Source of the DNA: Solirubrobacteraceae bacterium
GTDB lineage: Bacteria; Actinomycetota; Thermoleophilia; Solirubrobacterales; Solirubrobacteraceae
Assembly: GCA_030690545.1 (NCBI GenBank)
Contig: JAUYGN010000121.1
Span: forward strand, 1-38,754
DNA length: 38,754 nt
Direction: 5' to 3'
The notes beneath the pieces were generated by a model that was given only the letters and a program-made list of their open reading frames with translations, was not told where the DNA came from and searched no databases. How positions within the stretch are numbered: position 1 is the stretch's first letter; each line of letters starts with the position of its first letter. The translations under genes and the position numbers were made by a program. Positions 2,800-20,291 of this stretch are shown here, piece after piece.

Positions 2800-3018
2800 G
2801 GACACGGCACGGCTCGACGGCCCGCTCATCCGCAGCCACGCGAACGCCAGAGCGCAGCCGTCGCCGTCGTCAGCGCCGGACGGCTGCGCTTCCGGGTCGT
2901 TCGTGTCGCCTTGCTGAGGGCCGGAACCCATCGAGCCCCAGTCGGCCGTGCCGCGGTCCGCCGTCCGGAGGGCGCCAGCCCGGAGGACGACGTGGCCGCA
3001 GGCAGCGGCGCGGCCGGC

Positions 3019-3037
3019 GGCGGCGCGAAGCGCCGCC
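3019..3037. terminator. Perfect GC-rich hairpin
   Basis: ggcggcgc-gaa-gcgccgcc is an 8-bp perfect stem with a 3-base loop, followed by cttgatg and not by a T-run. It lies about 110 bp upstream of the HNH-like gene. It could insulate that gene from transcription entering from the left junction. The hairpin is certain, the terminator role is not. Confidence 0.4.
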
Positions 3038-3150
3038 CTTGATGAAGTAGAGAAGGTCGTCACGCAACCGCGATATCGGCAGCGGTCCGTGCCGGTAGTA
3101 ACGGAAGGTGCACCGAGGCGACCGACAGGTTCGCCATAGTCGGAGCCTCG

Positions 3151-3942: not shown

Positions 3943-3970
3943 GCGGGATGTCTGAAGTCGCGGTGATCGA

Positions 3971-4528: not shown

Positions 4529-4546
4529 CGACGTAGCGGCCTCACG

Positions 4547-4558
4547 GCAAACGTTTGC
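4547..4558. promoter_or_regulatory. 12-bp perfect palindrome before GNAT gene
   Basis: gcaaacgtttgc is a perfect inverted repeat, AT-richer than its surroundings. It is 19 bp upstream of the GNAT start and downstream of the YwgA-like gene. The shape suits a dimeric repressor site. No matching regulator can be named. Confidence 0.35.
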
Positions 4559-4589
4559 GACGCGGTGCGAGGTGCTGAGGCACCAGCAA

Positions 4590-6481: not shown

Positions 6482-6602
6482 AGGGATCGAATCGGCGGGT
6501 CATCCCGTCAGGCCCCCGACGAGCTCCCCGGCTCTTCAGGCCCCGGAACGGTAGCCAGCAGAGACGGCGTCACGGATGCGCCCGTCTCGGCACCGCCAGT
6601 CG

Positions 6603-9086
6603 TCATTCAGGGTCGGTCGCGACCTTCAATCCGACCCAGGAGCCGGCGGCTTGCTTGATGTCGCTCTCGGTCGCGAAGACGTAGTGCCAGTCGCCGAACC
6701 CGCCTTCGTCGCGAACGGCCCGCGCCCAGCGCTCCGCTGCCTCCTTCTTGCGGAGAACGTCGGCGTCCTGGGAGTGCTTGTCGGACTTGCCTTCGATGAC
6801 CCAGTGGGATCCATGGGCGTCGATCGCGATGAAGTCTGGGAAGTAGTCGCCGTCCCTGGGGGTGCGAATGAATGCGGGGCCGCTGGTGTAGAGGCGCAGC
6901 CACCAGCGGATTTCGTCATCACGGTCGAGCAGGTGGGCGATCGCCCATTCGGTGGTGCCTGCGTCGAACGATGCGATCGGCATGACGTTCCGTTGCCAGC
7001 CGCCGTAGTGGAGGTGCTTCACAAAGGGGTCGGAGTACGCATCGAGCGGCGCTTCGACGATCACGGGCTCGATCGGGAGGGTGATGGGGTCGAGTGCGTA
7101 GGTCATCTCACGGTGCTGCCTGGCCAGGGCCGCCTTGATCAGGCTCCGCATGCCGGCGATGGCCTGCTGACGCCGGTTCTCGCCCCACTCGGCCGTCTCG
7201 TCGCCGGTCACGACCCCAGCGCCCTTGAGGAACGCGTTCGTGATGCGTCTGGCCGCACGCTTCTCCGTCGCCGTCTCTGCGACCAGCCGGAACATCGCGG
7301 CGACGAGGTCGGCTCGGATCGTGTCGATGCCGGACAGCGTCTGCTGAGCCTCGACGTGCTGCTGGGGGCGGACCTTGATCGTGACGTTGTCGTCCTCTCC
7401 GCGTACGGCGGTCAGTTCGTCGCGCGCGAGGAAGGTTGGGACCTCGGTAATGAACCGAGCTCCGGCCGCCTGCGCGTCGCCGTCGGGGATGTCGGACAGC
7501 GAGAAGGTTGCGACGGTCAGTCGCGGTTCGCGTCGCGGGAAGTTGATCTGCGGCGCCCCGGGAGTCCGGGACACCGTCTGAGGGGAGGGAGTCGCGACGC
7601 GTTGCTTGAGCTCCTGGCCGAAGAGCGTCGGTGTCGCGGTGCCGCCGTCGTCGTGGGATTCGGTGAACGTGAACGGCCGCGGGCCGCGTGCGCCATCGTC
7701 CCGTACATCCCCTCCCGCCTGGTCGTCTGCGTCGAGGTCGCCGTCCCCTCCGGCCGCCTGCCCGGTCTGGGTGACGCCGCCCGGAGCCCCGGCGGCGCCA
7801 TGTTCATCGACCTCCACCTCGGCGGGTGGGCTCTCGATGCGCTCGCGTAGCGCGTCCTTCTGCGCAAGCAGTTGCCGGTAGGAGTCGTGTGCGACGAGGT
7901 CGACCTGGTCGACCGTCGGCACGCCAGTCAGCTCGCCGAACGGGAGTCGGAGGCCGCGGCCGAGGATCTGCTCGGTCAGGCCCTGCGATGCGAGCTTGCG
8001 TAGCGCGACGATCACGGCGATGTTCCGCACGTCCCAGCCCTCGCGGAGCATGTTCACGGACACGATCGCCCGGATCGGCGAGTCTGGCGCCTCGCACGCG
8101 GCGAGCGCGGTGAGGGCCTCGTCGGAGGACTGCGACGTGATCTCCAGCACGGCGCCGGGATCTCCGATGAACCCGTCCTGCGCCAGGCGCTGTCCGACAT
8201 CAGTGGCGTGGTCGATCGACGTGCACACGACGAATAGCACCGGCTTGACGTGTGGCAGGTCAGGACGCGTCGCCGACAGCTGCCGGTAGGCGGCGTCCTT
8301 CTTGCGCAGCAGGTGGCAGGCGTCGGCGAGCTGAGTGTGCTCGTCCTTCGTGCCGTCCTTGCGGTACACGATCACAGGCGTCTTCACGTGACCGTCGGCG
8401 ATCGCCTCGCCGAGCGTGTACTGGAACACGACCTTGTCGAGGTCCGACTTCGCGGGCGTGGCGGTCAGGCCTACCAGCGCGACCGGGTTCAGGTCCCGGA
8501 TCGCGGCCGAGAACGCCTTGGCCCGCTCGTGGTAGATGTGATGCTCGTCGGCGATCACGAGCAGGTCACCGGCATTCTCGAGATGCGAGTAGAGGTCGTC
8601 GCCGAGGTTCTCGTCGGTATCGCGCACCTTGCGCGACACCTTGTCGGTCGGCCGGATCAGCTGCTGGACGTTAAACACGAAGACCTTCAGCTCGTCCGGA
8701 TCCCGCAGCGCGGCGCCGACGCTCGCAGCGCGGAAGTTCTCCGGCGTGATCACGACAGGCTCGTGATCGGCGCCTCCGACATACTTCGCGCTGGCTACGT
8801 CGAAGTTCGCCAGCGTCTTGTTCTGGATGACACTGCCCGGCGTCACGACAAGCACGTGCCGGACGCCCTGCGCGGCGGCATAGTCGACGAGCGACGACAT
8901 GAGGTACGTCTTGCCGACGCCGGTCGCGAGGTCGGCGACGAGCTCCGGATACCCGCCGGAGTCACGGCCGTCTTCGGCGAGCGCCTTGACCACAGCATCC
9001 AGCGCGCGGCGGTTGGGCTCGCGCAGGTCGAAGCGGGCGGCGACTTCGGCGATCAGTGCATCGTCATGAGTGATGTCGACCGTCAT
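6603..9086 (-). CDS. res: Type III restriction endonuclease subunit Res
   Basis: An 827-residue ATP-dependent restriction subunit. The SF2 helicase motor shows ATGVGKT (54-60), the DEHH box (180-183), TATPAK (208-213), and SVNMLREGWDVRN...EQILGRGLRLPFG as motifs V-VI. The C-terminal PD-(D/E)xK nuclease is seen as PDF (D751) followed by E765-G-K767. Res acts with Mod to cut unmodified DNA after ATP-driven movement between inversely oriented sites. The gene starts 1 bp after the mod stop (TGACATG), which implies tight translational coupling. Between about 420 and 500 there is an acidic, Gly/Asp-rich linker that looks low-complexity. Length and motif order are normal for Type III enzymes. The recognition site cannot be read from sequence. 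Confidence 0.95.
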   Translation of the reverse strand: MTVDITHDDALIAEVAARFDLREPNRRALDAVVKALAEDGRDSGGYPELVADLATGVGKTYLMSSLVDYAAAQGVRHVLVVTPGSVIQNKTLANFDVASAKYVGGADHEPVVITPENFRAASVGAALRDPDELKVFVFNVQQLIRPTDKVSRKVRDTDENLGDDLYSHLENAGDLLVIADEHHIYHERAKAFSAAIRDLNPVALVGLTATPAKSDLDKVVFQYTLGEAIADGHVKTPVIVYRKDGTKDEHTQLADACHLLRKKDAAYRQLSATRPDLPHVKPVLFVVCTSIDHATDVGQRLAQDGFIGDPGAVLEITSQSSDEALTALAACEAPDSPIRAIVSVNMLREGWDVRNIAVIVALRKLASQGLTEQILGRGLRLPFGELTGVPTVDQVDLVAHDSYRQLLAQKDALRERIESPPAEVEVDEHGAAGAPGGVTQTGQAAGGDGDLDADDQAGGDVRDDGARGPRPFTFTESHDDGGTATPTLFGQELKQRVATPSPQTVSRTPGAPQINFPRREPRLTVATFSLSDIPDGDAQAAGARFITEVPTFLARDELTAVRGEDDNVTIKVRPQQHVEAQQTLSGIDTIRADLVAAMFRLVAETATEKRAARRITNAFLKGAGVVTGDETAEWGENRRQQAIAGMRSLIKAALARQHREMTYALDPITLPIEPVIVEAPLDAYSDPFVKHLHYGGWQRNVMPIASFDAGTTEWAIAHLLDRDDEIRWWLRLYTSGPAFIRTPRDGDYFPDFIAIDAHGSHWVIEGKSDKHSQDADVLRKKEAAERWARAVRDEGGFGDWHYVFATESDIKQAAGSWVGLKVATDPE

Positions 9087-9087
9087 G

Positions 9088-10887
9088 TCACCTCACTGTT
9101 CGTTTCGGGAACAGATCCCGCGGGGCCTTCTTGATGCGCGAGCCCGGTGCGGACTGCGCGAGCCGCGACTCGGCCTCGGGGAGCACGACCTTCGCGACGA
9201 TCACGGCGCGCTCCTTCGGACCGAGGTGCTCGACGACCGTACCGACGACGATTTCGTCGGCGACGCCATCGATCACGGCCAGCCGCTGGCGGCCGCGCGC
9301 GCCGCAGAAGACGGGGTGATCGGGCGTCAGGGTGAACCGGAGCTGGGCAGCGACTGCCTGGGACCAAGGGCCGTTCGTCGCCGCCGTCGACAGGTAGACG
9401 TCGCCGTCATCCTCGTCGACGTCGTACATCGACGGGCCGACCGCGAGATGCGTGAACCCGCCGCCGCCGTGCCAGGTCACGGTCGTCTCGTCGCGCGTTC
9501 TGGTGGCCGCACGGAGCGCCCGGACCGTTGCCGGGTCGAGGTCGTCGCGATCCTTGGCGACCTTGCCGAGCAGTCGGCCGAACTCCTGCGCCTCGGCAGG
9601 CGTCATCTCCGGAAGGCCCGCGTCCGTCGCCGCGACGCGCTCGGTCGACTTTGTGATGCCGCCCGGGTCGTCGCCGTCGACGACACGCGTGAGACGCGGC
9701 TTGGCGAAGGCCGAGGCCGTGTCCGCGATCAGCTCGCTCGTGATCCACCGGCGCCCCATCTTGTGCGCCACCGCGGCGGTGGTACCCGAGCCGGCGAAGC
9801 AGTCGAGTACGACGTCATTGGGGTGAGTCGCGACATGAATGATTCGATGGAGCAGCCGTTCGGGCTTCGGGGTGGCAAATGGGTCGATCCCCGGGAAGAG
9901 CGACTGGATCTCGTTCTTGGCGGTCTGGTTGTGACCTACATCGCTGTAGAACCACATGGTGCGCGGCACGGCCCCACGAACGTCGCTCAGGAAACGCTTG
10001 ACGGCAGGTACGTTCGATCCATCCGCGCCCCAGTAGATCCGGCCATCGGCATCCATCTCCCGCAGCTTCGTCGCTGAGACCCGCCAATACCGTCCGGGTG
10101 GAGGCCCATCGAGTTCTCGGCCGGAAGGCGTGGTAATTGGGTAGCGTCCAAGGCTGTAGGGCTTGTTCGCAAGAAGGTCACCGGGCTTCCACGGGCCGCG
10201 GGGGTCCTTGTCCGGATTTCCATACGCGGCGTCCATCGAGGCTGACCGACCGAGGTCGTTGGGTCTCCACGCATCCGCAGACTTCGCGTAGACCAAGATG
10301 TAGTCGTGGTCTACTGACAGGTACTTCGCTGAGTTCTTCGGGGAATACGCCTTCTGCCACACAATCGTGGCGATGAAGTTGCTCTCCCCGAGTTCTTCGT
10401 CCATCACTGCTCGGCACCGGTGCACCTCCGCGTCATCGAGATGGACCCACACCGAGCCGTCGCTCGCCAACAGCGGTTTGATCTGGCGGAGCCGGTCTCG
10501 AAGCATCGTGAGCCAGATCGAGTGCTCGATGTTGTCCTCGTACTGCGGGAACGCCTGTCCTGTGTTGAACGGCGGGTCGATGTAGACGAGCTTCACCTTG
10601 CCTACGTACTTCTGTGCCCACTCCGGCGTCTTCGAAAGGGCATCGAGGACGTGCATCGCGTCGCCGGTGATGAGCAGGTTCTCCCGGGTCGGTTCGGGCA
10701 GATCGTCGGGCCGCTCCTCCGGAATTGGCGCCTCGACGCGGTCGACCTCGTGCAGGAGTCGGACCTCTCGAACGCGGGGGTCGGCACGATCGACGAAGGT
10801 GTAGTCGTAACGGCCGTCGCCTGCCGATAGAAGCGCCTTGTCCTTGTCGGTCCAGGTCAGCTCAAGCCGGCCGGCGTGCTTTGCCAT
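9088..10887 (-). CDS. mod: Type III DNA methyltransferase subunit Mod
   Basis: A 599-residue adenine-N6 methyltransferase of the beta class. The catalytic DPPFNTG (104-110) precedes the AdoMet-binding DCFAGSGTT (362-370), the order typical of Type III Mod. The roughly 250 residues between them hold the target-recognition domain. Mod methylates one strand of an asymmetric site and is required for cutting by Res. It is the first gene of the leftward cargo operon. The ATG at 10887 is preceded by a good ribosome site (gaggaagag on the minus strand), with a TACGTT -10-like box about 20 bp farther up. It is divergent from the translocase gene, so the 240-bp gap holds promoters for both. Confidence 0.95.
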   Translation of the reverse strand: MAKHAGRLELTWTDKDKALLSAGDGRYDYTFVDRADPRVREVRLLHEVDRVEAPIPEERPDDLPEPTRENLLITGDAMHVLDALSKTPEWAQKYVGKVKLVYIDPPFNTGQAFPQYEDNIEHSIWLTMLRDRLRQIKPLLASDGSVWVHLDDAEVHRCRAVMDEELGESNFIATIVWQKAYSPKNSAKYLSVDHDYILVYAKSADAWRPNDLGRSASMDAAYGNPDKDPRGPWKPGDLLANKPYSLGRYPITTPSGRELDGPPPGRYWRVSATKLREMDADGRIYWGADGSNVPAVKRFLSDVRGAVPRTMWFYSDVGHNQTAKNEIQSLFPGIDPFATPKPERLLHRIIHVATHPNDVVLDCFAGSGTTAAVAHKMGRRWITSELIADTASAFAKPRLTRVVDGDDPGGITKSTERVAATDAGLPEMTPAEAQEFGRLLGKVAKDRDDLDPATVRALRAATRTRDETTVTWHGGGGFTHLAVGPSMYDVDEDDGDVYLSTAATNGPWSQAVAAQLRFTLTPDHPVFCGARGRQRLAVIDGVADEIVVGTVVEHLGPKERAVIVAKVVLPEAESRLAQSAPGSRIKKAPRDLFPKRTVR

Positions 10888-11076
10888 CTCTTCCTCGCGT
10901 CATGTCGGGACCAACGTATCGCCGGGAGGGCGACTGCGTCGACATGGCGAGTCCGCCCAGCATGGTGCGTGCCCGCGAGCCGCGACCGAGCCGGCGCGCC
11001 ACCCGCCCGAATTATCTGGCGAGCTGGCGTCCAGCGAACGAACCCAGCGTCGATGCGTGACGACGGACCTTTGATA

Positions 11077-11092
11077 GCTAGCCTGATAACCT
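11077..11092 (+). promoter_or_regulatory. Shared 16-bp element before translocase gene
   Basis: gctagcctgataacct lies upstream of the leader ORF and translocase gene. Sequences of the same form, in the same orientation relative to their gene, precede the GntR repressor gene and the Pra-like gene. Its TAGCCT could be a -10 box, and the whole may be the repressor's operator. A flanking gatag...ctatc inverted repeat (11073-11095) surrounds it. Confidence 0.5.
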
Positions 11093-11125
11093 ATCGACCT
11101 GGCGATCGCACGGAGAGGTATCTGC

Positions 11126-11182
11126 ATGAGACGTCTCACGAGCCCGGATCAGCGAGGCCGTCGGAACGAAGTGATCGCGTGA
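11126..11182 (+). CDS. 18-residue leader ORF coupled to translocase
   Basis: ATG 11126 is preceded by an excellent ribosome site (ggagagg, 7 nt spacing) and encodes MRRLTSPDQRGRRNEVIA. Its TGA overlaps the GTG start of the FtsK-like gene in a GTGA arrangement. The long gene itself has only a poor ribosome site, so ribosomes finishing the leader may reinitiate on it. The peptide has no recognisable function and is basic. Its reality is inferred from the ribosome site and overlap. Confidence 0.45.
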   Translation: MRRLTSPDQRGRRNEVIA

Positions 11183-12831
11183 TCAGTCGCAGTCGAGCTG
11201 TCGCGACTTACATCTGGGTCGGGCTGCTGCTGTTGTTCGCGATGGGGTTCGCGGGTCCCGACGGCGAGGCGCTGGGCCTCCTCGCGTGCCTGCTGCTGAG
11301 TGTGCTGGCGGTCGTTCGCTTGGATCGTCGCGCGGTCGATCAAGGGCGGGTCGACGGCTGGGTCTCGTCGCGCACGGCGACCGCGGTCTCGGTCCTCTGG
11401 GCGACGTGGGCTGTGGTCGCGAGCTCGCTGATCACGGGGGCGGGCGGTTCCCTTGGGCCCGGTCTACGATGCGTCGGCTCGCTGCTGGTGCTCGGCCTGG
11501 CGGCGCGGCGCATCCGCCGGTTCTCGCGCGAGCCCGGCGCTGATCGCCTCGAGCTCGTGTGGGGCGTCGTCGTCGATCGTCACCGGATCGTGCTGCTGGC
11601 CGTGCTCGCCGTGGGCGTGGTGGCAGACCTCGCGGCTGCGGCGACCGCGATCTCGGGCGGGCCGATCCCGCTCGTGCTCGGGCTGTCCGGGCTGTTCGCC
11701 GCGGGCTGGCGCGGTGGCTGGCGGCGCGATCGGATGGTGCGGCAGCTGCGGATCGTCGCCGCGAACGCGGGGCGCGTCGCGGACCCGTCGAACGTCGACA
11801 TCCACGTGCGGGTATGGGACGACGTCTTCATCGAGCGCGCGACGGTCCTGTATCCGATGACCTCCTGGGTCGCGCCGAGCGATCCGGCACCGTTGGAGCA
11901 GGCATTCGCGGCCGAGGGATGGCGCGCGACGCTGCATGCGGACAAGCGCATCGTGGACGTCGAGCGGCTGCCAGCGCGGATGGAGCTGCCGGAAACTGAC
12001 GCACTTGAACCCTACGAGCGCCCAACGGGCCTCGCGCTACGGCTTGGCGTAACGCACGACGAGGACGGACGAATCGTGCCCGCGATCTGGGATCCGGACG
12101 CTGCCGACCCGCACCTGCTGGCCATCGGGCCGACGAAGTCCGGCAAGTCCGTGCTGCTGCGGTGCCTGCTCGCGCAGGCGATCGCCGGCCGCTGGACGTC
12201 GGTCATCGCCGATCCGAAGGGCGTCGACTACCGCTGGGCTGCCGACCTCCCCGGCGTGGCGCTGCGAGCGAGCGGCGACGACGCGTTCGAGGCGATCGAC
12301 TTCGCCGTGGAGGAGATGCACCGCCGGCAGGCGTGGATGGAGGAGCACGCGGCGCTGACCGCGACGAATCTGTCCGAGGTCCCGGACAACCCGTTTCCGA
12401 ACATGCTCGTCGTGGTTGATGAGATGGCCGAGCTGGCGATGCTCGGGGACCGCAAGCGCCGCGAGCAGACGATGGCCGGCCTCGGGTCGCTCGCACGCCG
12501 CGCACGCTTCGTGAACATCGTCTTGGTCGTCGCGACGCAGCGCCCGGACGCGACGATCATCCCCGGCGAGATCCGCGGCAACCTCGGCACGCGAGTGCTC
12601 ACAGGGGAGGGCGAGCAGCAGCACAAGCTCATGGCGTTCAGCACGACGGACGTAAGCCCGCTGCCACCTGGCTACCCAAGAGGCCGTGGGCGTCTGATGG
12701 TCGGCGGTGCGCCGCCTGCGGAGTTCCAAGCAGCGTTCATCGACCCACGCACGGTGATCGATGTGCACGCAGTGTCGGCGGCCGGATCTGCAGGGGCCCG
12801 AGCGCGCTCGAACATCGTCAAGCTCTGCTGA
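11179..12831 (+). CDS. FtsK/SpoIIIE-type DNA translocase (AICE Tra)
   Basis: A 550-residue hexameric-type DNA pump, the only transfer protein AICEs need. Hydrophobic segments at about 8-25, 31-47, 67-86, 94-110 and 135-178 anchor it in the membrane. The motor has Walker A GPTKSGKS (317-324), a following SVIADPKGVDYR, and Walker B MLVVVDEMAEL (409-419). VVATQRP and GNLGTRVL follow, as in FtsK/TraB proteins. It probably moves double-stranded element DNA to a neighbouring cell. The open frame extends to 10876, but that part is Arg-rich non-protein-like sequence. GTG 11179 is chosen because the protein then begins just before the first membrane helix and overlaps the leader ORF stop. The C-terminus is short compared with TraB, with no clear winged-helix gamma domain visible. 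Confidence 0.9.
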   Translation: MISRSRAVATYIWVGLLLLFAMGFAGPDGEALGLLACLLLSVLAVVRLDRRAVDQGRVDGWVSSRTATAVSVLWATWAVVASSLITGAGGSLGPGLRCVGSLLVLGLAARRIRRFSREPGADRLELVWGVVVDRHRIVLLAVLAVGVVADLAAAATAISGGPIPLVLGLSGLFAAGWRGGWRRDRMVRQLRIVAANAGRVADPSNVDIHVRVWDDVFIERATVLYPMTSWVAPSDPAPLEQAFAAEGWRATLHADKRIVDVERLPARMELPETDALEPYERPTGLALRLGVTHDEDGRIVPAIWDPDAADPHLLAIGPTKSGKSVLLRCLLAQAIAGRWTSVIADPKGVDYRWAADLPGVALRASGDDAFEAIDFAVEEMHRRQAWMEEHAALTATNLSEVPDNPFPNMLVVVDEMAELAMLGDRKRREQTMAGLGSLARRARFVNIVLVVATQRPDATIIPGEIRGNLGTRVLTGEGEQQHKLMAFSTTDVSPLPPGYPRGRGRLMVGGAPPAEFQAAFIDPRTVIDVHAVSAAGSAGARARSNIVKLC

Positions 12832-13368
12832 GGGGCAGGCCTAGGCGCGCCCCGCGCGCCGAGTTCGCTGAGCGGTGGGCGACGGTCGCCTGCGTGCCTT
12901 GGCCCTCGTCCCACCACATGAGGTTGTCGCGATCGTTCGTCAGCGCCCACCATTCGATGACGGGCCGGCGGCAGCTCAGGAGGATGGGCAGGCTCTCGAT
13001 GGCATCGGCAGCTAGAACGTCCGTGATGGCTTCGTTCATCGAGAGCTCGCCGAACGGCGCGTCGCAGTGTGGGCAACCATTCGTTAGATAGCGCTCGCGA
13101 AGCGACTTGCTCCAGCGCGTCTTGATGGCCGCCGCGGCGGGGTCTCGGGCGCTGTCCAGCAAGTCTCGGGCATACGCCAGCGGCGCATCGCGTGTCGTCA
13201 CGAACGCGAGGTCTGCATGGGGTGAGTCTGCTGGGTGAGCAGGGCGGGAGGTCGGGCGAACTTCTTGCACCGCCGGCATTCCCTGTCGATACCGCGAAGG
13301 ACAACGGACACCTCGCTGCTCGTGGCCTGTGCGAGCAGCGACTGTGCCGTCTGAATCAGGTGAGCCAC
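12818..13368 (-). pseudogene. Frameshifted zinc-ribbon protein gene
   Basis: Two reading frames on the minus strand together make one plausible protein. The first (from about GTG 13368) gives VAHLIQTAQSLLAQATSS...RECRRCKKFARPPALL and stops at 13198. The second gives ADLAFVTTRDAPLAYARDLL...RWSKSLRERYLTNGCPHC...EWWALTNDRDNLMWW. The paired Cys motifs (C-x2-C in each half) and the YLTNGCPHC segment resemble actinobacterial proteins of unknown function with two zinc knuckles. The switch of frame falls between about 13205 and 13260 and needs a 1-nt change. The gene is convergent with the translocase and overlaps its last 14 bp. It could be a sequencing error or true decay; the ancestral start is uncertain. 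Confidence 0.55.
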
Positions 13369-13469
13369 ATCGACAGGTTTAGCGTAAAGGCCGGACCCAT
13401 GAGCTGGTCTGTTGCTGTGAGCACTCCTCGCTGATGTCGATGGGTGGTGTCGTCTCTGGTGTGACGACC

Positions 13470-14234
13470 TCAGGTGCCCGGAGCGGGCGGCGTTCGAGAG
13501 GCATTCGCGGCCCGCTCGATGACCGCGCGGCGTTGCGCCATCGTCGGCAGCCATAGGAGCCAGCACGCCAGTTCCACGAGCCGGTGCGTCTTGACCTCGG
13601 CGAGCGATGCAAGCAGGGGGTTGGGACCGACCAGGCTCGTGGCGACATGCTCGGCGCGCAGCTCTGTGCGCTTCACGATCTGGAATACGAAGGCGAGCCA
13701 TGCGAGTAGGAGCAGCAAATCGGCGGCGTGGGCGTGCTCGGGAGGGAACCCTGCATTCGCCAGTGCGAAGCGCCCGGCGACAACGAGGACTGTCATCGGC
13801 ACGATCACGCGGCGAAAAAGGCGAATGTCGCCGTTGATGATGTGCGCGAGTTCGTGCGCGAGTAGTCCTGTGAGTGCCGTCGCCGGGCGGGCGAGAGCGG
13901 CGCTGGTCACGGTGATGCGGTCCCGGCCTCTGAACGATCGCGGATGTCCGTTGTATGCGATGTCCTTGACGACCCGGATCCGCGGCATCGGTGTGTCAGC
14001 GAGCCTGGATAGCCGCGCGACCTCGTCGTGCAGGCTGTCCGGCACCGGTTGGCAGCGCGGGAGGATTTCACGCAGTACCGAGGCCGAGGCGTATGCCAGC
14101 ACTCCGAGCAGCGAGACGACGAACCCTGCTTGTCCGATGGCGGAGGCGGTTGCGGAACTGCTCCCCGCGAGCATGACGCTGACCACCAAGGCCGCGGCCG
14201 TGCCGAGTGGCCAGTAGCGTGTGACACGGGCCAT
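13470..14234 (-). CDS. M48-family membrane metalloprotease (HtpX/Ste24-like)
   Basis: A 254-residue membrane zinc protease. Two hydrophobic helices (about 10-28 and 35-53) precede the catalytic domain. The zinc site is HELAH (H127, E128, H131), with the third ligand probably E191 in KRTELRAEH, matching the E-x-x-A-D/E position of M48. Two more helices lie at about 143-160 and 170-187, as in HtpX. The start overlaps the stop of the preceding unknown gene by one base (TGATG), so they are translated together. HtpX-like enzymes degrade misfolded membrane proteins; on a mobile element the target could be its partner or a host protein. The C-terminal 50 residues contain a further hydrophobic patch (LVELACWLLWLP). 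Confidence 0.85.
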   Translation of the reverse strand: MARVTRYWPLGTAAALVVSVMLAGSSSATASAIGQAGFVVSLLGVLAYASASVLREILPRCQPVPDSLHDEVARLSRLADTPMPRIRVVKDIAYNGHPRSFRGRDRITVTSAALARPATALTGLLAHELAHIINGDIRLFRRVIVPMTVLVVAGRFALANAGFPPEHAHAADLLLLLAWLAFVFQIVKRTELRAEHVATSLVGPNPLLASLAEVKTHRLVELACWLLWLPTMAQRRAVIERAANASRTPPAPGT

Positions 14235-15001
14235 CAGGCCACCTCCGACTCAAAGCGGTCGTACCGTGGTCGGTAGTGCACTCGTGGCTTGGGCTGAGAT
14301 CGGTCCCGATCGCGGTGAACCTCGTACAGGACGTGCCGGGAGCAGTGGAGCGCCGCCGCGAGCTGGTGTTCCATTTGTGTAATTGGCTCCATCAGAAGAT
14401 CGTCGATCTCGATCGTCTCGACCGTCTCGTCTGCCTGCTCCAGCAGTGGCACGAGCGCTTCGACGGCGTCGCAGGCCAAAAACAAACCGCGCTGAATGGC
14501 CGCCACTGCGGCGTCGAGCAGACGGGACGCGTGTGCTACCTCGTTTTGCATCATTCCGAGGGGAGTGAGGTCGGGGTCGCTGCTCTCGATCATCGCCGCC
14601 CAGACATCGCCCAGCTTGCGGAACCCCTTGTCGAGGTCGGTCATTTTCGCGCAGGTGCGTGTCCATGCATCGCGCAGCGGCGCCCGGACCTCACGGGCGA
14701 ACTCCGCAATGATCCCGATCGCTTCGCTGGCGATGGGGTGCAGCTCACACGCGGTGACGGCGTGCAGGTGCACCTCCGACACGGAGCGCATGAGCGACGC
14801 GACGTACGGGGCCGGCGCGAGTGCTCGGACATCGGCCGCGAGCTGGTTGTAGCGGCCGTCGGCCATCGTCTTGCGTAGCCAGACCTGATACGCGTGCTGG
14901 TTGTCGGCGATCCGGAGGGCGGCGTCGTATCGGACGTGTCCCGGCGAGATCCGCCTGATGTCTCGTGCTTGCTTTGCGCGCCTGGTGTCGCCATCTGCCA
15001 T
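14234..15001 (-). CDS. Unknown helical protein coupled to M48 protease
   Basis: A 255-residue protein of no family I recognise. It has no signal peptide or membrane segment. It is predicted mostly helical, with hydrophobic heptad-like stretches around 110-140 and 150-215 and an acidic segment (LLEQADETVETIEIDDLLMEP) near 185-210. The ends are basic: RRAKQARDIRRISPGH at the start and RDRDRSQPKPRVHYRPRYDR at the end. It overlaps the M48 gene start by one base, so the pair is a functional unit. A regulator or substrate of the protease is a reasonable guess only. ATG 15001 is followed by typical coding composition. The upstream region (15002-15220) may hold the promoter. Confidence 0.75.
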   Translation of the reverse strand: MADGDTRRAKQARDIRRISPGHVRYDAALRIADNQHAYQVWLRKTMADGRYNQLAADVRALAPAPYVASLMRSVSEVHLHAVTACELHPIASEAIGIIAEFAREVRAPLRDAWTRTCAKMTDLDKGFRKLGDVWAAMIESSDPDLTPLGMMQNEVAHASRLLDAAVAAIQRGLFLACDAVEALVPLLEQADETVETIEIDDLLMEPITQMEHQLAAALHCSRHVLYEVHRDRDRSQPKPRVHYRPRYDRFESEVA

Positions 15002-15518
15002 GGGTCTCCTGCCTTCGGTGGCGCCCGCGCAACGCGACCGAAAATGCCCAAGGAGGGGGGAACAGATCAGACGCTAACGCAGGCCCGCCCGAGACGGCTT
15101 GTCCGTTGTGGCCGCGGGCGCGGGCCGCGTGGCCACCGGAGTGCGCTGCTACATCAGCACATCGATCACAGTAGAGCACGCTACCGACAGAACGCCCACC
15201 CCAACGCAACGCATACGACGTCATGCGCCGTTGGTGAGCACTCGGGCGCAATAGTCGGCCGCGCGACATGGCCCCATGTGGTCCGCGGTCGCGGTCGGCG
15301 AGCTACCCAGATGCCCCGGACGGTCGGTCGTCGGCCGGATGTGCCGCGACGGTCGCGGCGGCGTCCAGCGCGCGCCTCGCTCGCAATCCGTCTGCTCAGC
15401 GTCAGCGCTGGGCGCCGAGGATCTCGCTCCTGCGGTCAGCCGAGCGACGAATGTGGCCTGCTCAGCGGCGAGACGGGGGCTCTTGTGCGTGATCGTGTGC
15501 CAGGGTGGTGTCCTGCCA
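15002..15518. other. No intact gene; probable decayed coding sequence
   Basis: 15002-15220 shows no gene and probably contains the promoter of the leftward unknown/M48 pair. On the minus strand from about 15520 down to 15320 there are short protein-like pieces (for example SPRLAAEQATFVARLTAG) in shifting frames. This suggests a second small gene that followed the frameshifted gene at 15519-15796, its ATG overlapping that gene's TGA (CCTGATGG). Nothing continuous can be assembled with confidence. Confidence 0.35.
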
Positions 15519-15796
15519 TCAGGTCTGCCTCGTGTCGTCGTCGACTTCGATGCGCAGTTCGCGGATCTGCGAGCCGGCCGGCAGCAGTGACGTGATGGCG
15601 TTGCTGGCAAATCGTGCGGCGTCGGCGAGCGTCGGGGGTGTCGTCAGCGAGCACGATCACGGCGCTGCCCATCGGCCTCGAAGCTGATGACGGGTCCGAG
15701 GTCGGGGCGGTCGTGTTCGAGGGTGCTGATGAGCGGTGCCCATCTGGCTTCGTCGTCGAACGGCAGGTTTGTGATCGTCGTCCAGACGCGGTGCAT
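15519..15796 (-). pseudogene. Small conserved-type gene with two frameshifts
   Basis: Three consecutive frames on the minus strand join into one protein-like sequence of about 92 residues. From ATG 15796: MHRVWTTITNLPFDDEARW...DLGPVISFEADGQ. Then, after a 1-nt shift near 15665: AVIVLADDTPD. Then, after a second shift near 15635: LADAARFASNAITSLLPAG...RIEVDDDTRQT, ending at 15519. Each piece alone stops early or turns Arg-rich. The gene lies 43 bp downstream of the GntR repressor gene in the same direction, a position where small helper genes are common in such elements. Two indels in 280 bp argue for real decay more than sequencing error. The function is unknown. Confidence 0.55.
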
Positions 15797-15839
15797 CGCT
15801 TCGTCAGAACTGCGGTCGATCGGCCGGTGGCGGGGAGGT

Positions 15840-16604
15840 TCAGCCCGCCCAGGGGTCCGCGACCACGTCGAGATCGACGGGAGTGCCTGGCGGATGGCAT
15901 GTGATCTCGTGGGCGATGAGCTGTCCGTCGCGGTCCGAGGTCGTTGTGGTGACGGAGAGGAGGTAGGCGCGGGATCCGAGTCCGAGGTCGTCAGCGGCGG
16001 TCCGGTGGTCTCGGGTCGGCGAGCATGCGACGGTCGTCTTGGTGGATGCCGGGATGCGCCCGGTCTGCGAGCCGATGTACATGGGGGCGCCGCCCAAGAG
16101 CAGCTTGGTCTTTAGCAGGAGCGGGCACGTGTCGACGAGTTCGCCGGGGAAATAGCTGACGCTGGACATCAGCGGTGTGTCGTCGGGGTCGACGGTCACG
16201 GTGCGACGCACAACTACGTCGTCCTGGCGGTCCGTGCCGAACGCGTCTGCGAGATCCGCCGGGAGGCGTCGGAGGTCGGCCTCGACGACGCGTGTCTGTT
16301 CGCCGAGCGGCAGCGTGCGGGTCACTCGGGGCCAGCTCGACGTGGGGATCTTGGATGCGTCGAGGTCAGAGAACGTCACGGCGGGCTCGGTGATGAAGCT
16401 CGGTGTGCCCGGTCTCGACTTGATCAGGCCGAGCGCGACGAGCATCGCGCGGGCCTTCGTGACGGTCGGCTTGCTGACGCCGAACTCGGCGGCGAGCGTG
16501 GCGTCGCCGGGGATCGTGTCGCCGGGCTTGTAGCGGCCGTCGTCGATGCGGGCGCGCAGCTCGTTGGCGATCTGCTCGGCGGGGCTGGCTCGCTGGACGG
16601 ACAT
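15840..16604 (-). CDS. GntR/UTRA-family repressor, KorSA-like
   Basis: A 254-residue transcription factor. The N-terminal winged helix (about 9-73) has the GntR pattern: QIANELRARIDDGRYKPGDTIPGDATLAAEFGVSKPTVTKARAMLVALGLI. The remaining part fits a UTRA effector-binding domain. In pSAM2 the GntR-type KorSA silences pra and thereby replication and transfer; this gene is divergent from a Pra-like gene, the same arrangement. The 92-bp gap between them, and the translocase promoter, share a 16-bp sequence that is a candidate operator. A further copy lies just upstream of its own start, which would give autoregulation. The ligand is unknown. The homology to KorSA is inferred from fold and position. 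Confidence 0.85.
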   Translation of the reverse strand: MSVQRASPAEQIANELRARIDDGRYKPGDTIPGDATLAAEFGVSKPTVTKARAMLVALGLIKSRPGTPSFITEPAVTFSDLDASKIPTSSWPRVTRTLPLGEQTRVVEADLRRLPADLADAFGTDRQDDVVVRRTVTVDPDDTPLMSSVSYFPGELVDTCPLLLKTKLLLGGAPMYIGSQTGRIPASTKTTVACSPTRDHRTAADDLGLGSRAYLLSVTTTTSDRDGQLIAHEITCHPPGTPVDLDVVADPWAG

Positions 16605-16611
16605 GGCGGGC

Positions 16612-16627
16612 AGGTTACCTCTCTAGC
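16612..16627 (-). promoter_or_regulatory. Shared 16-bp element before repressor gene
   Basis: On the coding (minus) strand this reads gctagagaggtaacct, 12 of 16 bases the same as the element before the translocase gene. It is 7 bp upstream of the repressor start, so it could overlap the transcription start or ribosome site. It is a candidate site for autorepression. Confidence 0.45.
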
Positions 16628-16655
16628 CGCCTGTGCGCCAATCGAGGGGACAGGT

Positions 16656-16671
16656 GCTAGCCTGTAAAGCA
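16656..16671 (+). promoter_or_regulatory. Shared 16-bp element before Pra-like gene
   Basis: gctagcctgtaaagca shares its first nine bases with the element before the translocase gene and 12 of 16 overall. It overlaps a perfect inverted repeat gcctg-taaag-caggc (16660-16674). The TAGCCT inside could be a -10 box. The Pra-like start is 25 bp downstream, after a ribosome site (aaagggg). Confidence 0.45.
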
Positions 16672-16696
16672 GGCAAGCAATCGAGAAAGGGGCAGT

Positions 16697-17035
16697 ATGC
16701 GGATTCCGATCGACACGGCTGGGCTGACGTTTATCGCGGGCAACGATCCGTCGATGGTGCTGGACATGGAGGGCAAGCCTCGCGCGGATCGCGCGACTGG
16801 CGAGGTGCTGTGGGGCTTGGACCTCGTCGCTCTCGGGAGCGAGGACGGCGCGGAGGTCTGGGCGGTCCGCGTCGCGGGTGAGCCGAAGGGCGTTCAGGTC
16901 GGCCAGCCGCTCAACGTCGAGGGCCTGGTGGCGATGCCGTGGGAGATCGACGGGCGGCACGGGATCAGCTTCCGTGCGCGCAAGCTCGCGGCCATGGGCG
17001 GCTCGCAAGCGAAGGCGACCGCTGCGGCGGCCTGA
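16697..17035 (+). CDS. Pra-like small AICE protein
   Basis: A 112-residue protein of the kind found beside replication genes in Streptomyces integrative elements. Typical features are an opening RIPIDTAGLTFIAG, a central EVWAVRVAGEPKGVQVGQPLNVEGLVAMPWE, and a short Ala/Lys tail. In pSAM2 the pra product activates replication, integration and excision; the match here is by general sequence pattern and by position between a KorSA-like repressor and a RepSA-like gene. It looks like an OB-fold-sized beta protein and may bind DNA or the replication machinery. Ribosome site aaagggg lies 7 nt before ATG 16697. The rep gene follows after 31 bp, so they are probably one transcript. Confidence 0.75.
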   Translation: MRIPIDTAGLTFIAGNDPSMVLDMEGKPRADRATGEVLWGLDLVALGSEDGAEVWAVRVAGEPKGVQVGQPLNVEGLVAMPWEIDGRHGISFRARKLAAMGGSQAKATAAAA

Positions 17036-17066
17036 CGGACCGACCAGGATTCGAGCGGGGCAGCGG

Positions 17067-18563
17067 ATGCGCGAGATGGCCACACGGCCGGAACCCGTGA
17101 CGGCGCCGTCCGCTGCTCTGCTCGAAGCGGTCGTCGACCGCGTCAGCCGCCCGGACTTCCGACGCTTCGAGGCGCAGCTTCGGTCGTCGGGGTACTGCCA
17201 GAAACCGGTGCTGCTCGCGGGCCGAGTGGAGGTCTGCGACGGCGGCGACACCCGCCGCCCGGTCTGGTCGACGGATGGCGAGCCCGATCAGGTGCTGCGC
17301 AAAGCGTGCGGCAACCGCCGCGAAGCGGTCTGCAAGCCGTGCTCGGAGCGCTACCGCGGCGACGCCTGGCAGCTGATCGCGGCCGGCCTGCGCGGCGGGA
17401 AGGGCGTCCCGGAATCGGTGGCCGGTCATCCGACGCTGTTCGTGTCGCTGACCGCGCCGAGTTTCGGCGCCGTCCACAGCCTCCGACGTACCAAGGACGG
17501 CGAACCTGCGCGATGCCGTCCGCGGCGCGCCCGCGAGTGCTGTCCGCACGGGATCCCGCTCGGCTGCCCCAAGCACCACGACCCTGACGACCCGTGTCTT
17601 GGTGAGCCGTTGTGCCGTGAGTGTTTCGACTACCGCGGCGCGGTGCTGTGGAACAACGTCATGAGCGAGCTGTGGCGCCGCACGATGATCTACCTCCCGC
17701 GCGAGCTCGCCGCGATCCTCGGATGGACGCAGCGCCGTCTCAACGAGGAGGTCCGCGTCTCCTACATCAAGGTCGCCGAATACCAGGCACGCGGCCTGGT
17801 CCATGTACACGCCCTGATCCGCCTCGATCGCCGGATGCCCGCGTACCGGGTCGATGAGGTCCACGCGCCCGCCCGTCGTTTCACCGCCGAGCTACTCGAA
17901 CAGGCGCTGCGAGCCGCGGCCGAGAACGTCAGCGCGCCCGCGCCGGAGGAACTCAGCGGCTCGCCCGCCTGCTGGGGCGAGCAGCTCGATGTCCAGCGCC
18001 TCGACGGCAACGCCGACGAGCGCGGACGTCGCGCGAGCTATCTGGCGAAGTACTCGACGAAGGGCACCGAGCAGGCCGGCGGCCTCCCATACCGCGTGCG
18101 CCGCGACGGTCTCGATCGGCTCCCGGTCCGCGAGCACGTCCGCGAGCTCGTTGGCCAAGCCTTCCACCTCGCCGACGAGGACACCGAAGGAAGGCGCCGG
18201 CTCGCTCCGTGCGCGCACATGTTCGGCTACCGCGGTCACTGCCTGAGCAAGTCGCGGCGCTGGTCGACGACGTTCAAGGCGCTGCGCGAAGCCAGAGAAC
18301 TCCACGTCCGTGAGCAGCTCGCCAAGCACGGGACCGACGCGGTGCAACGCGCGCTCGCCGAAGCCGAGCCCGAGGACCGGATCGGCGAGTTCTCGTTCGT
18401 CGGGCTGGGTCATCTCACAAGTGCCGACGCCTACCTGGCCGCTCAAGCAGCCGCCAGCGCCCGCGAACGACGGGAAGCCGGGCGCGAAGCCCGCTTCGAC
18501 CACCACAACGGAGGAGGCAGGACCCGATGGCCGCAGACGCCACCCGAAGTCATGGCCGCGTGA
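17067..18563 (+). CDS. repSA: RepSA-like rolling-circle replication initiator
   Basis: A 498-residue initiator of the actinobacterial plasmid/AICE type. A cysteine-rich region (CGNRREAVCKPCSERYR at about 86-102, and further Cys/His around 150-190) probably binds zinc. The HUH metal motif is VHVHALIRLD (H246, H248), and the nicking tyrosine motif is YLAKYSTKG (Y325, Y329). Such proteins nick the double-strand origin and allow the excised element to replicate by rolling circle. ATG 17067 (MREMATRPEP) is the first sensible start; ATG 17076 is an alternative. The open frame extends upstream inside the Pra-like gene but in a shadow frame. The downstream xis gene begins inside the last 37 bp. The double-strand origin itself was not located. 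Confidence 0.85.
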   Translation: MREMATRPEPVTAPSAALLEAVVDRVSRPDFRRFEAQLRSSGYCQKPVLLAGRVEVCDGGDTRRPVWSTDGEPDQVLRKACGNRREAVCKPCSERYRGDAWQLIAAGLRGGKGVPESVAGHPTLFVSLTAPSFGAVHSLRRTKDGEPARCRPRRARECCPHGIPLGCPKHHDPDDPCLGEPLCRECFDYRGAVLWNNVMSELWRRTMIYLPRELAAILGWTQRRLNEEVRVSYIKVAEYQARGLVHVHALIRLDRRMPAYRVDEVHAPARRFTAELLEQALRAAAENVSAPAPEELSGSPACWGEQLDVQRLDGNADERGRRASYLAKYSTKGTEQAGGLPYRVRRDGLDRLPVREHVRELVGQAFHLADEDTEGRRRLAPCAHMFGYRGHCLSKSRRWSTTFKALREARELHVREQLAKHGTDAVQRALAEAEPEDRIGEFSFVGLGHLTSADAYLAAQAAASARERREAGREARFDHHNGGGRTRWPQTPPEVMAA

Positions 18564-18763
18564 CCCCGGCCGACACGTTCGAGCCGTTCCTGACCGCCCG
18601 CGAGGTCGCCGACCGCCTCCGGATCGCACCGTGCACGGTGCTGCGCTATTTCGACGAGGGCGTCCTCCCCGGCCGCCGGCTCCGCGCCGGACGCTGCCGC
18701 CCGGTCCGCTTCCGCTGGAGCGAGATTGAGGCCGCGCTGCTCACGCAGGGGCGGACCGAATGA
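18527..18763 (+). CDS. xis: Excisionase-like helix-turn-helix protein
   Basis: A 78-residue protein with a single HTH of the MerR/BldC/excisionase type: FLTAREVADRLRIAPCTVLRYFDEGVLPGRRL...VRFRWSEIEAAL. Proteins of this size between rep and int are the recombination directionality factors (Xis) of AICEs, which bend the attachment-site arms and favour excision. A strong ribosome site (ggaggagg) lies inside the rep gene about 10 nt before ATG 18527. The stop overlaps the integrase start in ATGA, so xis and int are co-translated. Confidence 0.85.
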   Translation: MAADATRSHGRVTPADTFEPFLTAREVADRLRIAPCTVLRYFDEGVLPGRRLRAGRCRPVRFRWSEIEAALLTQGRTE

Positions 18764-19824
18764 GTCGTCGCTCCGGACAGGCCCGCACCGGGGAGATCAA
18801 GCGAACGGCGACCGGCTGGGCGATCCGCTACCGCGACGCCCGCGGAAACCGCAAACAGCGCGCCGGCTTCCGCACCAAGGCCGACGCCAAAAAGGCGCTC
18901 GATGAGGAGTTGCGCAAGGCGAGTCTCGGCCCGCTGCACCGGCCCGAGGTCACACTGCGCGAACTGGTCGACGTCTTCATGGAGCAGTACGAAGCGGCAC
19001 CCGCGAGCCGCGAATGGATGCGCCACCACCTCGGCAAGGCGACCGCGGAACTCGGCGACATCCCGCTCGGCGAGCTGGACGCGCTCACGGTTTCCCGTTG
19101 GCGGGCGAAGCTGCCGTTGACCACGAGACACGGCGCCCACCGGGCATTGCGGCAGGTGCTCGCCGCCGCGGTGCGATGGCAGTGGATCGAACGCAGCGTC
19201 GCGCTCGACGTCGCCAATCCGATGCACGCCCGCGACGAGTTTCAGACCTTCGAGTCGTGGCAGGAGGTCGACACGCTGGCCGCTGAGCTCGGGGACTTCG
19301 GGCCGCTCGTCATCTTCTGCGTCGGCACGGGAGTGCGGCCCGAGGAGGCGTTCGGAGCCGACTGGACCGACATCGACCTCGACAGCCGCATCTTCACGGT
19401 CCGGCGCGCCTACGCGAAGAGGCGACTGAAGCCGTACCCGAAGACGCAAGGCTCTCGCCGTCGCGTCCCGCTGCGGGCGAAGGTCGTCGAGGCGCTCCAG
19501 GAACTGCCGGCGAGAGACGGCGTGCTGTTCCCGCGCACCGATGGCGGCCGGATCGACATCAACAACTTCCGCTCGCGCGAGTGGGCCCCCGCGCTGGTCG
19601 CTGCCGGGATCGAGCATCGCCGCATCTACGACATGCGCCACACGTTCGCCACGTGGAGCCTCGCCGCCGGGATGAGCATCTTCACGCTCTCGCGACGCAT
19701 GGGCACGAGCGTGCAGATGATCGACCGCACCTACGGCCACCTCGCGCAGGACGCCGAACAGCACGACCGCGCCCTGCTCGACGCATACGACGCCGAGGCC
19801 GGCGCGGAGTCAGTGGGCACGTAG
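18760..19824 (+). CDS. int: Tyrosine site-specific integrase
   Basis: A 354-residue phage-type integrase. The N-terminus (about 14-50) is an arm-binding domain with basic residues (RYRDARGNRKQRAGFRTKADAKKAL), followed by a core-binding helical domain (65-150). The catalytic set is R193 (GTGVRPEEA), K228, R293 in YDMRHTFATW and nucleophile Y325 (RTYGHL). Two usual histidines differ: Tyr290 stands where His is common in H-x-x-R, and T316 (RMGTS) stands at the His/Trp position; both variants occur in actinobacterial integrases. It recombines attP with the tRNA-Val 3' half. The gene ends 64 bp before the tRNA gene, with two gtgggcac repeats over its stop codon. Confidence 0.95.
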   Translation: MSRRSGQARTGEIKRTATGWAIRYRDARGNRKQRAGFRTKADAKKALDEELRKASLGPLHRPEVTLRELVDVFMEQYEAAPASREWMRHHLGKATAELGDIPLGELDALTVSRWRAKLPLTTRHGAHRALRQVLAAAVRWQWIERSVALDVANPMHARDEFQTFESWQEVDTLAAELGDFGPLVIFCVGTGVRPEEAFGADWTDIDLDSRIFTVRRAYAKRRLKPYPKTQGSRRRVPLRAKVVEALQELPARDGVLFPRTDGGRIDINNFRSREWAPALVAAGIEHRRIYDMRHTFATWSLAAGMSIFTLSRRMGTSVQMIDRTYGHLAQDAEQHDRALLDAYDAEAGAESVGT

Positions 19825-19831
19825 TGGGCAC
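19813..19831. repeat. Candidate right arm-type integrase sites
   Basis: gtgggcac occurs at 19813-19820 and 19824-19831, 11 bp apart, overlapping the integrase stop codon. The pair mirrors gcgggcac/gtgggcac at 2781-2799 near the left end. This fits arm sites for the integrase or Xis. Confidence 0.45.
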
Positions 19832-19887
19832 GACGCTCGGGCGGTGGACCCGGCGCCCGAGCCGGGAACGCCACGAATAGCGGGCTA

Positions 19888-19961
19888 TGGGCGGTCCCGG
19901 GCTCGAACCGGGGACCTCCTGCTTGTAAGGCAGGCGCTCTGACCGGCTGAGCTAACCGCCC
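19888..19961 (-). tRNA. tRNA-Val(UAC), hybrid 3' half at attR
   Basis: Folds as a complete 74-nt tRNA: acceptor GGGCGGT/ACCGCCC with discriminator A, D-arm AGCTCAGCCGGTCAGAGC, anticodon stem CCTGC/GCAGG with loop CTTACAA (anticodon UAC), and T-arm CCCGG-TTCGAGC-CCGGG. No CCA is encoded. The 19 bp at 19913-19931 are repeated at the left junction. The 5' half is chromosomal, while the T-arm and acceptor 3' strand come from the integrated element. The element therefore restores a functional tRNA. It lies 19 bp downstream of tRNA-Lys, probably on the same transcript. Confidence 0.95.
19913..19931. repeat. attR core, 19-bp direct repeat
   Basis: gacctcctgcttgtaaggc is identical to 2672-2690. It covers the anticodon 3' stem, part of the anticodon loop and the variable loop of tRNA-Val. 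Flanking bases differ on both sides, so this is the recombination identity block. Confidence 0.9.
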
Positions 19962-19980: not shown

Positions 19981-20291
19981 TGGGCCGCCTGGGGCTCGAA
20001 CCCAGAACCTAGGGATTAACCTGCCGCACCGGCTCTCACCGGCCGCGCTTCGCGTTGCGGTCTGGACCATCTCTTCACCCTCGCCCGTTCGCGTTAGGGT
20101 GGGCAGCGTATGGCCTCTGAGGGCTCTCCCTTGCGGGGTTGCCTGCTGATTGCCCAATCCTGAGGATTGTCACCACGATGGGTACCTCAGGCTCTCAGGG
20201 GATCCCAGCAAACAGCTGCCGACCAACCAGCGGTTTCCCGACTGGCGCTCCGTACCGAAGTCCCTTGCTCTACCGATTGAGCTAACGGCCC
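19981..20291 (-). tRNA. tRNA-Lys(UUU) interrupted by group I intron
   Basis: Exon 1 (20258-20291) is 34 nt ending in ...AGGGACTT; exon 2 (19981-20019) is 39 nt starting TTAATCCCT. Joined, they form a 73-nt tRNA: acceptor GGGCCGT/GCGGCCC with discriminator A (one G-U pair), D-arm AGCTCAATCGGTAGAGC, anticodon stem AGGGA/TCCCT with loop CTTTTAA (anticodon UUU), and T-arm CTGGG-TTCGAGC-CCCAG. No CCA is encoded. The intron interrupts the anticodon between positions 34 and 35. Without splicing the anticodon arm cannot form. Whether another tRNA-Lys exists elsewhere in the genome is unknown. Confidence 0.92.
20020..20257 (-). ncRNA. Group I self-splicing intron (IC3-like), 238 nt
   Basis: The conserved core is plain when read on the minus strand. 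A Q-like element (GGCAATCAGCAGGC) and an R-like element (CCTCAGAGGCC) are followed by CCCTAACGCGAACGG and GAGGGTGAAGAGATGGTCC. These closely parallel the Anabaena tRNA-Leu intron core. The 5' splice site follows a U, and a P1 hairpin CUUCG-GUA-CGGAG places that U opposite G. The last intron base is G. No homing endonuclease gene is present; the short frame across it is not protein-like. The subgroup is inferred from resemblance. Confidence 0.92.

What the first reader, a model, noticed from the sequence alone, without database searches (positions are those of the whole stretch)
19981..20291. Group I intron in a tRNA-Lys(UUU) anticodon
A 238-nt intron with a clear group I core interrupts the anticodon after U34. 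Well-known bacterial hosts of such introns are tRNA-Leu(UAA), tRNA-Arg, tRNA-Ile and tRNA-fMet; a lysine tRNA is, to my knowledge, unusual. The insertion point after U34 matches the tRNA-Leu(UAA) introns, and both anticodons begin with U, suggesting spread between tRNAs by target similarity.
Basis: partly seen in the sequence, partly recalled or inferred. Interest (0 to 1): 0.75.

Follow-up and report, generated by a model that had tools for sequence, protein, structure and literature searches.

The report
Self-splicing intron inside lysine tRNA gene
The only gene found in this bacterium's assembly for the transfer RNA that reads the lysine codon AAA is split inside its anticodon by a 238-base intron of the self-splicing (group I) kind, and the same split gene occurs in scattered bacteria of three phyla and in two virus contigs, where standard tRNA finders miss it.

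Summary
On the minus strand, 20291..19981 is a complete tRNA-Lys(UUU) gene interrupted after U34 by a 238-nt intron (20257..20020). Rfam's group I model covers the whole intron (48.0 bits, E 4e-11; just under the curated cut-off of 50). Joined exons fold as tRNA-Lys(UUU), and no other such gene was found in the genome (98.6% complete). A database scan found 34 equivalent split genes in Solirubrobacterales, Agromyces/Microbacterium, Chloroflexota and Planctomycetota, plus two viral contigs. On 38 aligned genes the group I helices covary. One species of the window's genus has an uninterrupted gene in the same tRNA neighbourhood. What changes is the proposed origin: the core has the P4/P5 signature of rRNA introns (AAUCAGCAGG in 15/17 Lys, 17/22 rRNA, 0/7 tRNA-fMet introns), so spread from other tRNA introns by anticodon similarity is not supported, although tRNA-Leu introns could not be fetched. 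Splicing itself was not tested. I found no report of a tRNA-Lys(UUU) group I intron; a 2014 review states that all phage introns then known lay in protein genes. Verdict: real, a new variant of a known kind.

The parts
20258..20291 (-). 5' exon of tRNA-Lys(UUU), nucleotides 1-34
20020..20257 (-). 238-nt group I intron; no open reading frame of note
   Evidence: RF00028 48.0 bits E 4.1e-11; covariation; R1 core model 175 bits
19981..20019 (-). 3' exon of tRNA-Lys(UUU), nucleotides 35-73; CCA not encoded
20248..20260 (-). P1: exon C32 U33 U34 (20260-20258) with intron GAG (20250-20248); U.G pair at the 5' splice site
   Evidence: invariant in all 37 distinct sequences; an invariant pair gives no covariation evidence
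20227..20245 (-). P2 hairpin
   Evidence: 6 of 7 pairs with changes on both sides, 72% of cells paired
20102..20220 (-). P3: GGCAGC (20220-20215) with GCUGCC (20107-20102)
   Evidence: 100% paired, 5 of 6 pairs with changes on both sides
20144..20210 (-). P4: UGCUG (20210-20206) with CAGCA (20148-20144), enclosing P5 and P5a
   Evidence: P4 invariant; P5a 6 of 7 pairs with changes on both sides
20122..20143 (-). P6 and P6a
   Evidence: partly supported (58-80% of cells paired)
20065..20115 (-). P7: GGCCAU (20115-20110) with AUGGUC (20070-20065); forms the pseudoknot with P3
   Evidence: 90.5% paired, 2 pairs with changes on both sides
20077..20100 (-). P8 hairpin ACCCU/AGGGU
   Evidence: 4 of 5 pairs with changes on both sides
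20024..20060 (-). P9 and P9b, loop with GAGA
   Evidence: 100% paired, 5 of 8 pairs with changes on both sides
20020..20020 (-). terminal intron G (omega G) before U35
   Evidence: present in all 38 sequences, but required by the search pattern for most of them

Best explanation
A small, endonuclease-free group I ribozyme sits between U34 and U35 of the single tRNA-Lys(UUU) gene. In the precursor its P1 helix (CUU of the anticodon loop with intron GAG) sets the 5' splice site, guanosine bound in P7 attacks after U34, the freed U34 attacks after the terminal G, and the exons join to give a standard tRNA-Lys(UUU). Because no other gene for an AAA reader was found, splicing must be efficient in the cell. 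The intron family entered tRNA-Lys(UUU) genes of several phyla and of viruses. Its core resembles introns of rRNA genes, so it probably came from that stock by a change of host gene, and then passed on by descent, loss and occasional transfer, possibly carried on phage tRNA genes. Shown by sequence: anatomy, covariation, distribution, single-copy status in the assembly. Inferred: splicing, its efficiency, the direction of the move and the vector.
For: Full-length RF00028 match. Joined exons make tRNA-Lys(UUU). 44 intact tRNA genes in the genome include tRNA-Lys(CUU) but no other tRNA-Lys(UUU); AAA codons are rare but used (8 of 118 lysine codons in eight ORFs). 30 of 34 other host genomes gave no intact tRNA-Lys(UUU): 28 no pattern match, 2 only matches that do not look like tRNA genes and were not examined further. 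Covariation over 38 genes. Uninterrupted gene in a species of the same genus beside the same tRNA-Glu. Model R1 separates 13 tRNA-Lys introns (150-178 bits) from all other hits (90 bits or less) in 232 genomes of the order, and these are the same 13 that the exon pattern found. Core comparison: Lys introns closer to rRNA introns than to tRNA-fMet introns by R1 score (best rRNA hits 66-109 bits, fMet 54-60), mean identity (0.62 against 0.58) and signature motifs.
Against: No RNA data. The Rfam score is below the curated cut-off. No P10 pairing of the 3' exon with the intron's 5' part was recognised. The fold energy is ordinary. The genome is in 149 contigs, so a second tRNA-Lys(UUU) could be missing. 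Four other host genomes do have an additional uninterrupted tRNA-Lys(UUU). The rRNA origin rests on an unrooted 161-column tree and motif counts, and the R1 model was trained on Lys introns.
Confidence: 0.9

Rival explanations
1. The Lys introns belong to the tRNA intron stock (tRNA-Leu, -fMet, -Ile, -Arg; subgroup IC3) and moved to tRNA-Lys because of the shared CUU before the insertion point.
For: Same insertion point after U34 as tRNA-Leu(UAA) introns (established knowledge); the P8 hairpin ACCCUAACG..CGAGGGU of the Solirubrobacterales introns also occurs in tRNA-fMet introns.
Against: The P4 motif AAUCAGCAGG is in 15/17 Lys and 17/22 rRNA introns but 0/7 fMet introns; CGGGGAA is in 7/7 fMet and 0/17 Lys; fMet introns form a separate clade on a long branch, 100/100.
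Confidence: 0.12
2. The gene is a decayed or non-functional tRNA with an inert insertion.
For: Rfam score below the cut-off; no expression data.
Against: Intact cloverleaf, sole tRNA-Lys(UUU) found, compensatory changes in helices across phyla, conservation in 13 genomes of the order.
Confidence: 0.03
3. It is a group I-derived intron that needs a host protein to splice, or has lost unaided catalysis.
For: Many group I introns need helper proteins in vivo (established knowledge); P10 not recognised.
Against: All core helices are kept; the intron is small and has no ORF, as in self-splicing bacterial tRNA introns.
Confidence: 0.15

Closest known systems
[quoted passage not shown]
   Same: Inserted after U34 of a tRNA anticodon; about 250 nt; ORF-less; CUU in P1
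   Different: Host tRNA and phyla. By my recollection its core is of the IC3 type, like the fMet introns compared here; not fetched, so not tested directly
Group I introns of tRNA-fMet(CAU), found here in Chloroflexota and one actinobacterial family (L207, L240, L241, L244-L246, L249)
   Same: Group I intron in a tRNA anticodon loop; similar P8 hairpin
   Different: Inserted after U33; other P4/P5 signature; separate clade
Group I introns of 23S and 16S rRNA genes in the same phyla
   Same: P4 motif AAUCAGCAGG, the GACAA/AACAA motif before it, CCUCAGAG at P7; closest cores by score
   Different: Host gene and site; often longer
'Group I introns' reported in cyanobacterial tRNA-Lys(CTT) (PMC5733544)
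   Same: Also claimed for a lysine tRNA
   Different: 22-49 nt long, too short to hold a group I core; other anticodon; likely a gene-finder artefact
trnK(UUU) intron of land plant chloroplasts (own knowledge)
   Same: Intron in tRNA-Lys(UUU)
   Different: Group II intron with matK

Membership tests
Group I intron | P3-P8 catalytic core, with P3/P7 pseudoknot | tested here: met
   RF00028 full-length match; P3, P7, P8 pairing and changes on both sides in 38 sequences
Group I intron | U.G pair at the 5' splice site in P1 | tested here: met
   Invariant in 37 distinct sequences; seen also in the 8 found without the exon pattern
Group I intron | G as last intron nucleotide | tested here: met
   the 8 members found by covariance model are independent of the pattern
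Group I intron | P10 pairing of the 3' exon | tested here: inconclusive
   No clear complement of UUAAUC seen by eye in the 5' part; no dedicated test run
Group I intron | Guanosine-dependent self-splicing | not testable with these tools
   needs RNA
tRNA-Lys(UUU) gene | Cloverleaf with UUU anticodon after removal of the intron | tested here: met
tRNA-Lys(UUU) gene | Orthologous uninterrupted gene in a relative | tested here: met
   G230, L162:1486-1558, same genus, beside tRNA-Glu
Subgroup IC3 (tRNA introns) | P4/P5 signature as in tRNA-fMet introns | tested here: not met
   0/17 Lys introns against 7/7 fMet introns; assigning the fMet introns to IC3 is own knowledge
rRNA-type bacterial group I introns | P4 motif and J5/4 region shared with 23S/16S introns | tested here: met
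   15/17 against 17/22; formal subgroup (for example IB4) not tested
Mobile group I intron with homing endonuclease | Endonuclease ORF inside the intron | tested here: not met
   238-nt intron; no ORF of 100 aa or more listed there

The most novel reading that the evidence does not exclude
rRNA-type group I introns crossed into tRNA-Lys(UUU) genes, a host class so far held to carry another intron stock, and are spread among bacterial phyla on phage tRNA genes, helped by free-standing endonucleases encoded between those tRNA genes (collaborative homing).
Probability: 0.3. Interest if true: 0.75.

Novelty: new variant of a known kind. Interest (0 to 1): 0.6.

Why it matters
It adds a host tRNA and an apparently different core type to bacterial tRNA introns, shows independent use of the same anticodon site, and gives the first case I could find of a group I intron in a phage tRNA gene; a 2014 review states that all phage introns then known lay in protein genes (PMC3984707). 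It also explains why genomes of some Agromyces, Microbacterium and Solirubrobacterales species can appear to lack the tRNA for AAA codons, and it can be tested at once in cultured strains.

Tried and rejected
Whole-window Rfam at the gathering threshold missed the intron. A scan for tRNA-Leu(UAA) introns in viral contigs gave only chance matches, so no tRNA-Leu intron was available for the tree. A 19-base phage-intron word hit a 375-kb virus (L256), but there is no intron there. Two scans for shorter introns in viral contigs found nothing. No plasmid match. Phage matches in Acinetobacter and Pseudomonas phages cover only part of the core and show no sign of lying in a tRNA gene (Pseudomonas: portal protein). 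Rfam on the rRNA-containing loci failed internally twice; rRNA context was judged from conserved motifs instead. An excess of exon differences in the anticodon stem between the occupied and empty genes of the genus (5 of 10 differences in 10 of 73 positions, hypergeometric p 0.003) hints at co-conversion, but paired sites are not independent, so it is only a lead. The 20 hits of the exon pattern without an intact tRNA cloverleaf were discarded. The idea that A31-U39 is a target requirement was dropped, since uninterrupted genes often have it too.

Full report
Observation. The minus strand of the window at 20291-19981 reads GGGCCGUUAGCUCAAUCGGUAGAGCAAGGGACUU, then 238 nt, then UUAAUCCCUAGGUUCUGGGUUCGAGCCCCAGGCGGCCCA. 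The joined exons are a canonical tRNA-Lys(UUU) with all stems paired. ARAGORN without introns and Rfam's tRNA model see only the neighbouring tRNA-Val and tRNA-Glu. Infernal with relaxed reporting matches the group I model over its full length at 48.0 bits, E 4.1e-11; the gathering score is 50, which is why a default scan is silent.

Only gene of its kind. The genome (3.53 Mb, 149 contigs, 98.6% complete) holds 44 intact tRNA genes. Fetched and typed, they include tRNA-Lys(CUU) but no tRNA-Lys(UUU). AAA codons occur (8 AAA, 110 AAG in eight ORFs). In 34 further genomes with the split gene, a loose pattern for an uninterrupted tRNA-Lys(UUU) gave nothing in 28, matches in two (G697, G730) that do not look like tRNA genes and were not examined further, and a confirmed extra gene in four: Agromyces humi, two Gemmataceae and Blastopirellula.

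Distribution. RF00028 in 299 genomes of the class gave eight tRNA introns, all in tRNA-Lys(UUU) at the same site, and 17 other hits, which by their flanks lie in rRNA genes or are unassigned. An exon-plus-P7 pattern in one genome per species of GTDB gave 54 loci, of which 34 have a complete split tRNA-Lys: Solirubrobacterales, Agromyces and Microbacterium, two Chloroflexota, three Planctomycetota. The same pattern in virus contigs gave two true cases, L132 and L137. Within the window's order 13 of 232 genomes carry it, and an independent core model (R1) finds exactly these 13 at 150-178 bits, everything else at 90 bits or less, so the pattern did not bias that set. In Microbacteriaceae it is rare, 2 of 200 sampled genomes.

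Empty site. Six of seven sampled genomes of the window's genus have the intron. The seventh (G230) has an uninterrupted tRNA-Lys(UUU) next to tRNA-Glu, the arrangement also seen around the split gene of close relatives. Nearly all other relatives spot-checked have uninterrupted genes (23 of 24 by loose pattern; ARAGORN confirmed most). The intron is therefore optional and sporadic.

Structure. On 38 aligned genes (70% mean column identity) I counted a structure derived from the window sequence and group I rules: 77 pairs, 91.4% of cells paired, 43 pairs with changes on both sides against 29 in shuffles, covariation score 0.373 against 0.125. P3, P5a, P8, P9 and P2 covary; P7 shows two pairs with changes on both sides; P1 and P4 do not vary. 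Since the structure was drawn on one of the sequences and the sequences are related, these numbers support but do not prove it; the slid controls (35-48% paired) are far below.

Relationship. A tree of the introns keeps Solirubrobacterales, Microbacteriaceae, Planctomycetota, Chloroflexota and virus introns as one group each; the Solirubrobacterales introns lie with those of Chloroflexota (99/92), not with those of the other actinobacteria, which fits transfer or an old history with much loss. Core model R1 scored rRNA introns at up to 109 bits and tRNA-fMet introns at 54-60. The P4 motif AAUCAGCAGG is in 15/17 Lys, 17/22 rRNA and 0/7 fMet cores; CGGGGAA is in 0, 1 and 7. Mean identity is 0.62 Lys to rRNA and 0.58 Lys to fMet. 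One clade of Lys introns is not rejected (AU p 0.61) and fMet introns are a separate clade (100/100). I infer that the Lys introns belong to the stock that lives in rRNA genes. Limits: short alignment, no root, model trained on Lys introns, no tRNA-Leu introns at hand.

Viruses. L137 (6.9 kb) has the split tRNA-Lys next to tRNA-Leu, an ORF with a GIY-YIG domain (E 5e-4), a DNA ligase, a ribonucleotide reductase piece and an S-AdoMet lyase. L254, 17.5 kb around L132, has 23 other tRNA genes, HNH-type ORFs between them, a polynucleotide kinase-phosphatase and a T4-type RNA ligase. A 2014 review says that phage introns known then were all in protein genes (PMC3984707).

Literature. In the held library I found no tRNA-Lys(UUU) group I intron. 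One paper claims 22-49 nt group I introns in cyanobacterial tRNAs including tRNA-Lys(CTT) (PMC5733544), which is too short for a group I core. The tRNAscan-SE 2.0 paper names fMet and Ile2 and says that the program was not made to find such introns (PMC8450103). Subscription journals are mostly not held, so priority is not proven.

Verdict. Real, well supported by comparative evidence, new in host gene and apparent core type; mechanism known in kind; splicing untested.

Noticed in passing
window 2647-19961: A probable pSAM2-like actinobacterial integrative element of about 17 kb in tRNA-Val(UAC), directly beside the tRNA-Lys gene: tyrosine integrase 18760-19824, RepSA initiator 16878-18563 (E 3e-132), FtsK/SpoIIIE 10876-12831, GntR regulator 15840-16604, and a partial copy of the tRNA-Val end at 2647-2690. 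It also holds a DNA methylase (9088-10887) and a ResIII-type helicase (6603-9086), possibly a defence module.
   Followed up: partly
L207:1413-1743, L240:1287-1723, L241:1415-1721, L244, L245, L246, L249:998-1716: Group I introns in initiator tRNA-fMet(CAU), after U33, in several Chloroflexota and one actinobacterial family; the one in L249 lies in the same genome (G730) as a tRNA-Lys intron and seems to hold an open reading frame.
   Followed up: partly
L254 (virus record of L132): Phage with 24 tRNA genes, HNH-type ORFs between them, polynucleotide kinase-phosphatase and T4-type RNA ligase; in T4 such enzymes repair tRNA-Lys cut at its anticodon by a host nuclease (own knowledge), so an intron at that very site of the phage's tRNA-Lys is a curious coincidence.
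   Followed up: no
L002-L006, L186-L206: Group I introns in 23S and 16S rRNA genes are common in this phylum, often several per genome.
   Followed up: no
L095: A record titled Bifidobacterium breve MAG carries a Solirubrobacterales-type tRNA-Lys intron (contig of the same length as that of genome G246 in the window's family), so the record is probably misnamed.
   Followed up: no
L010/L099, L012-L014, L083, L094, L118: Several split tRNA-Lys genes have a mismatch at pair 27-43 of the anticodon stem, in seven of 37 distinct sequences.
   Followed up: no
L256:1128-1223: A 375-kb virus contig with a large tRNA array has one tRNA-like gene with an undefined anticodon.
   Followed up: no
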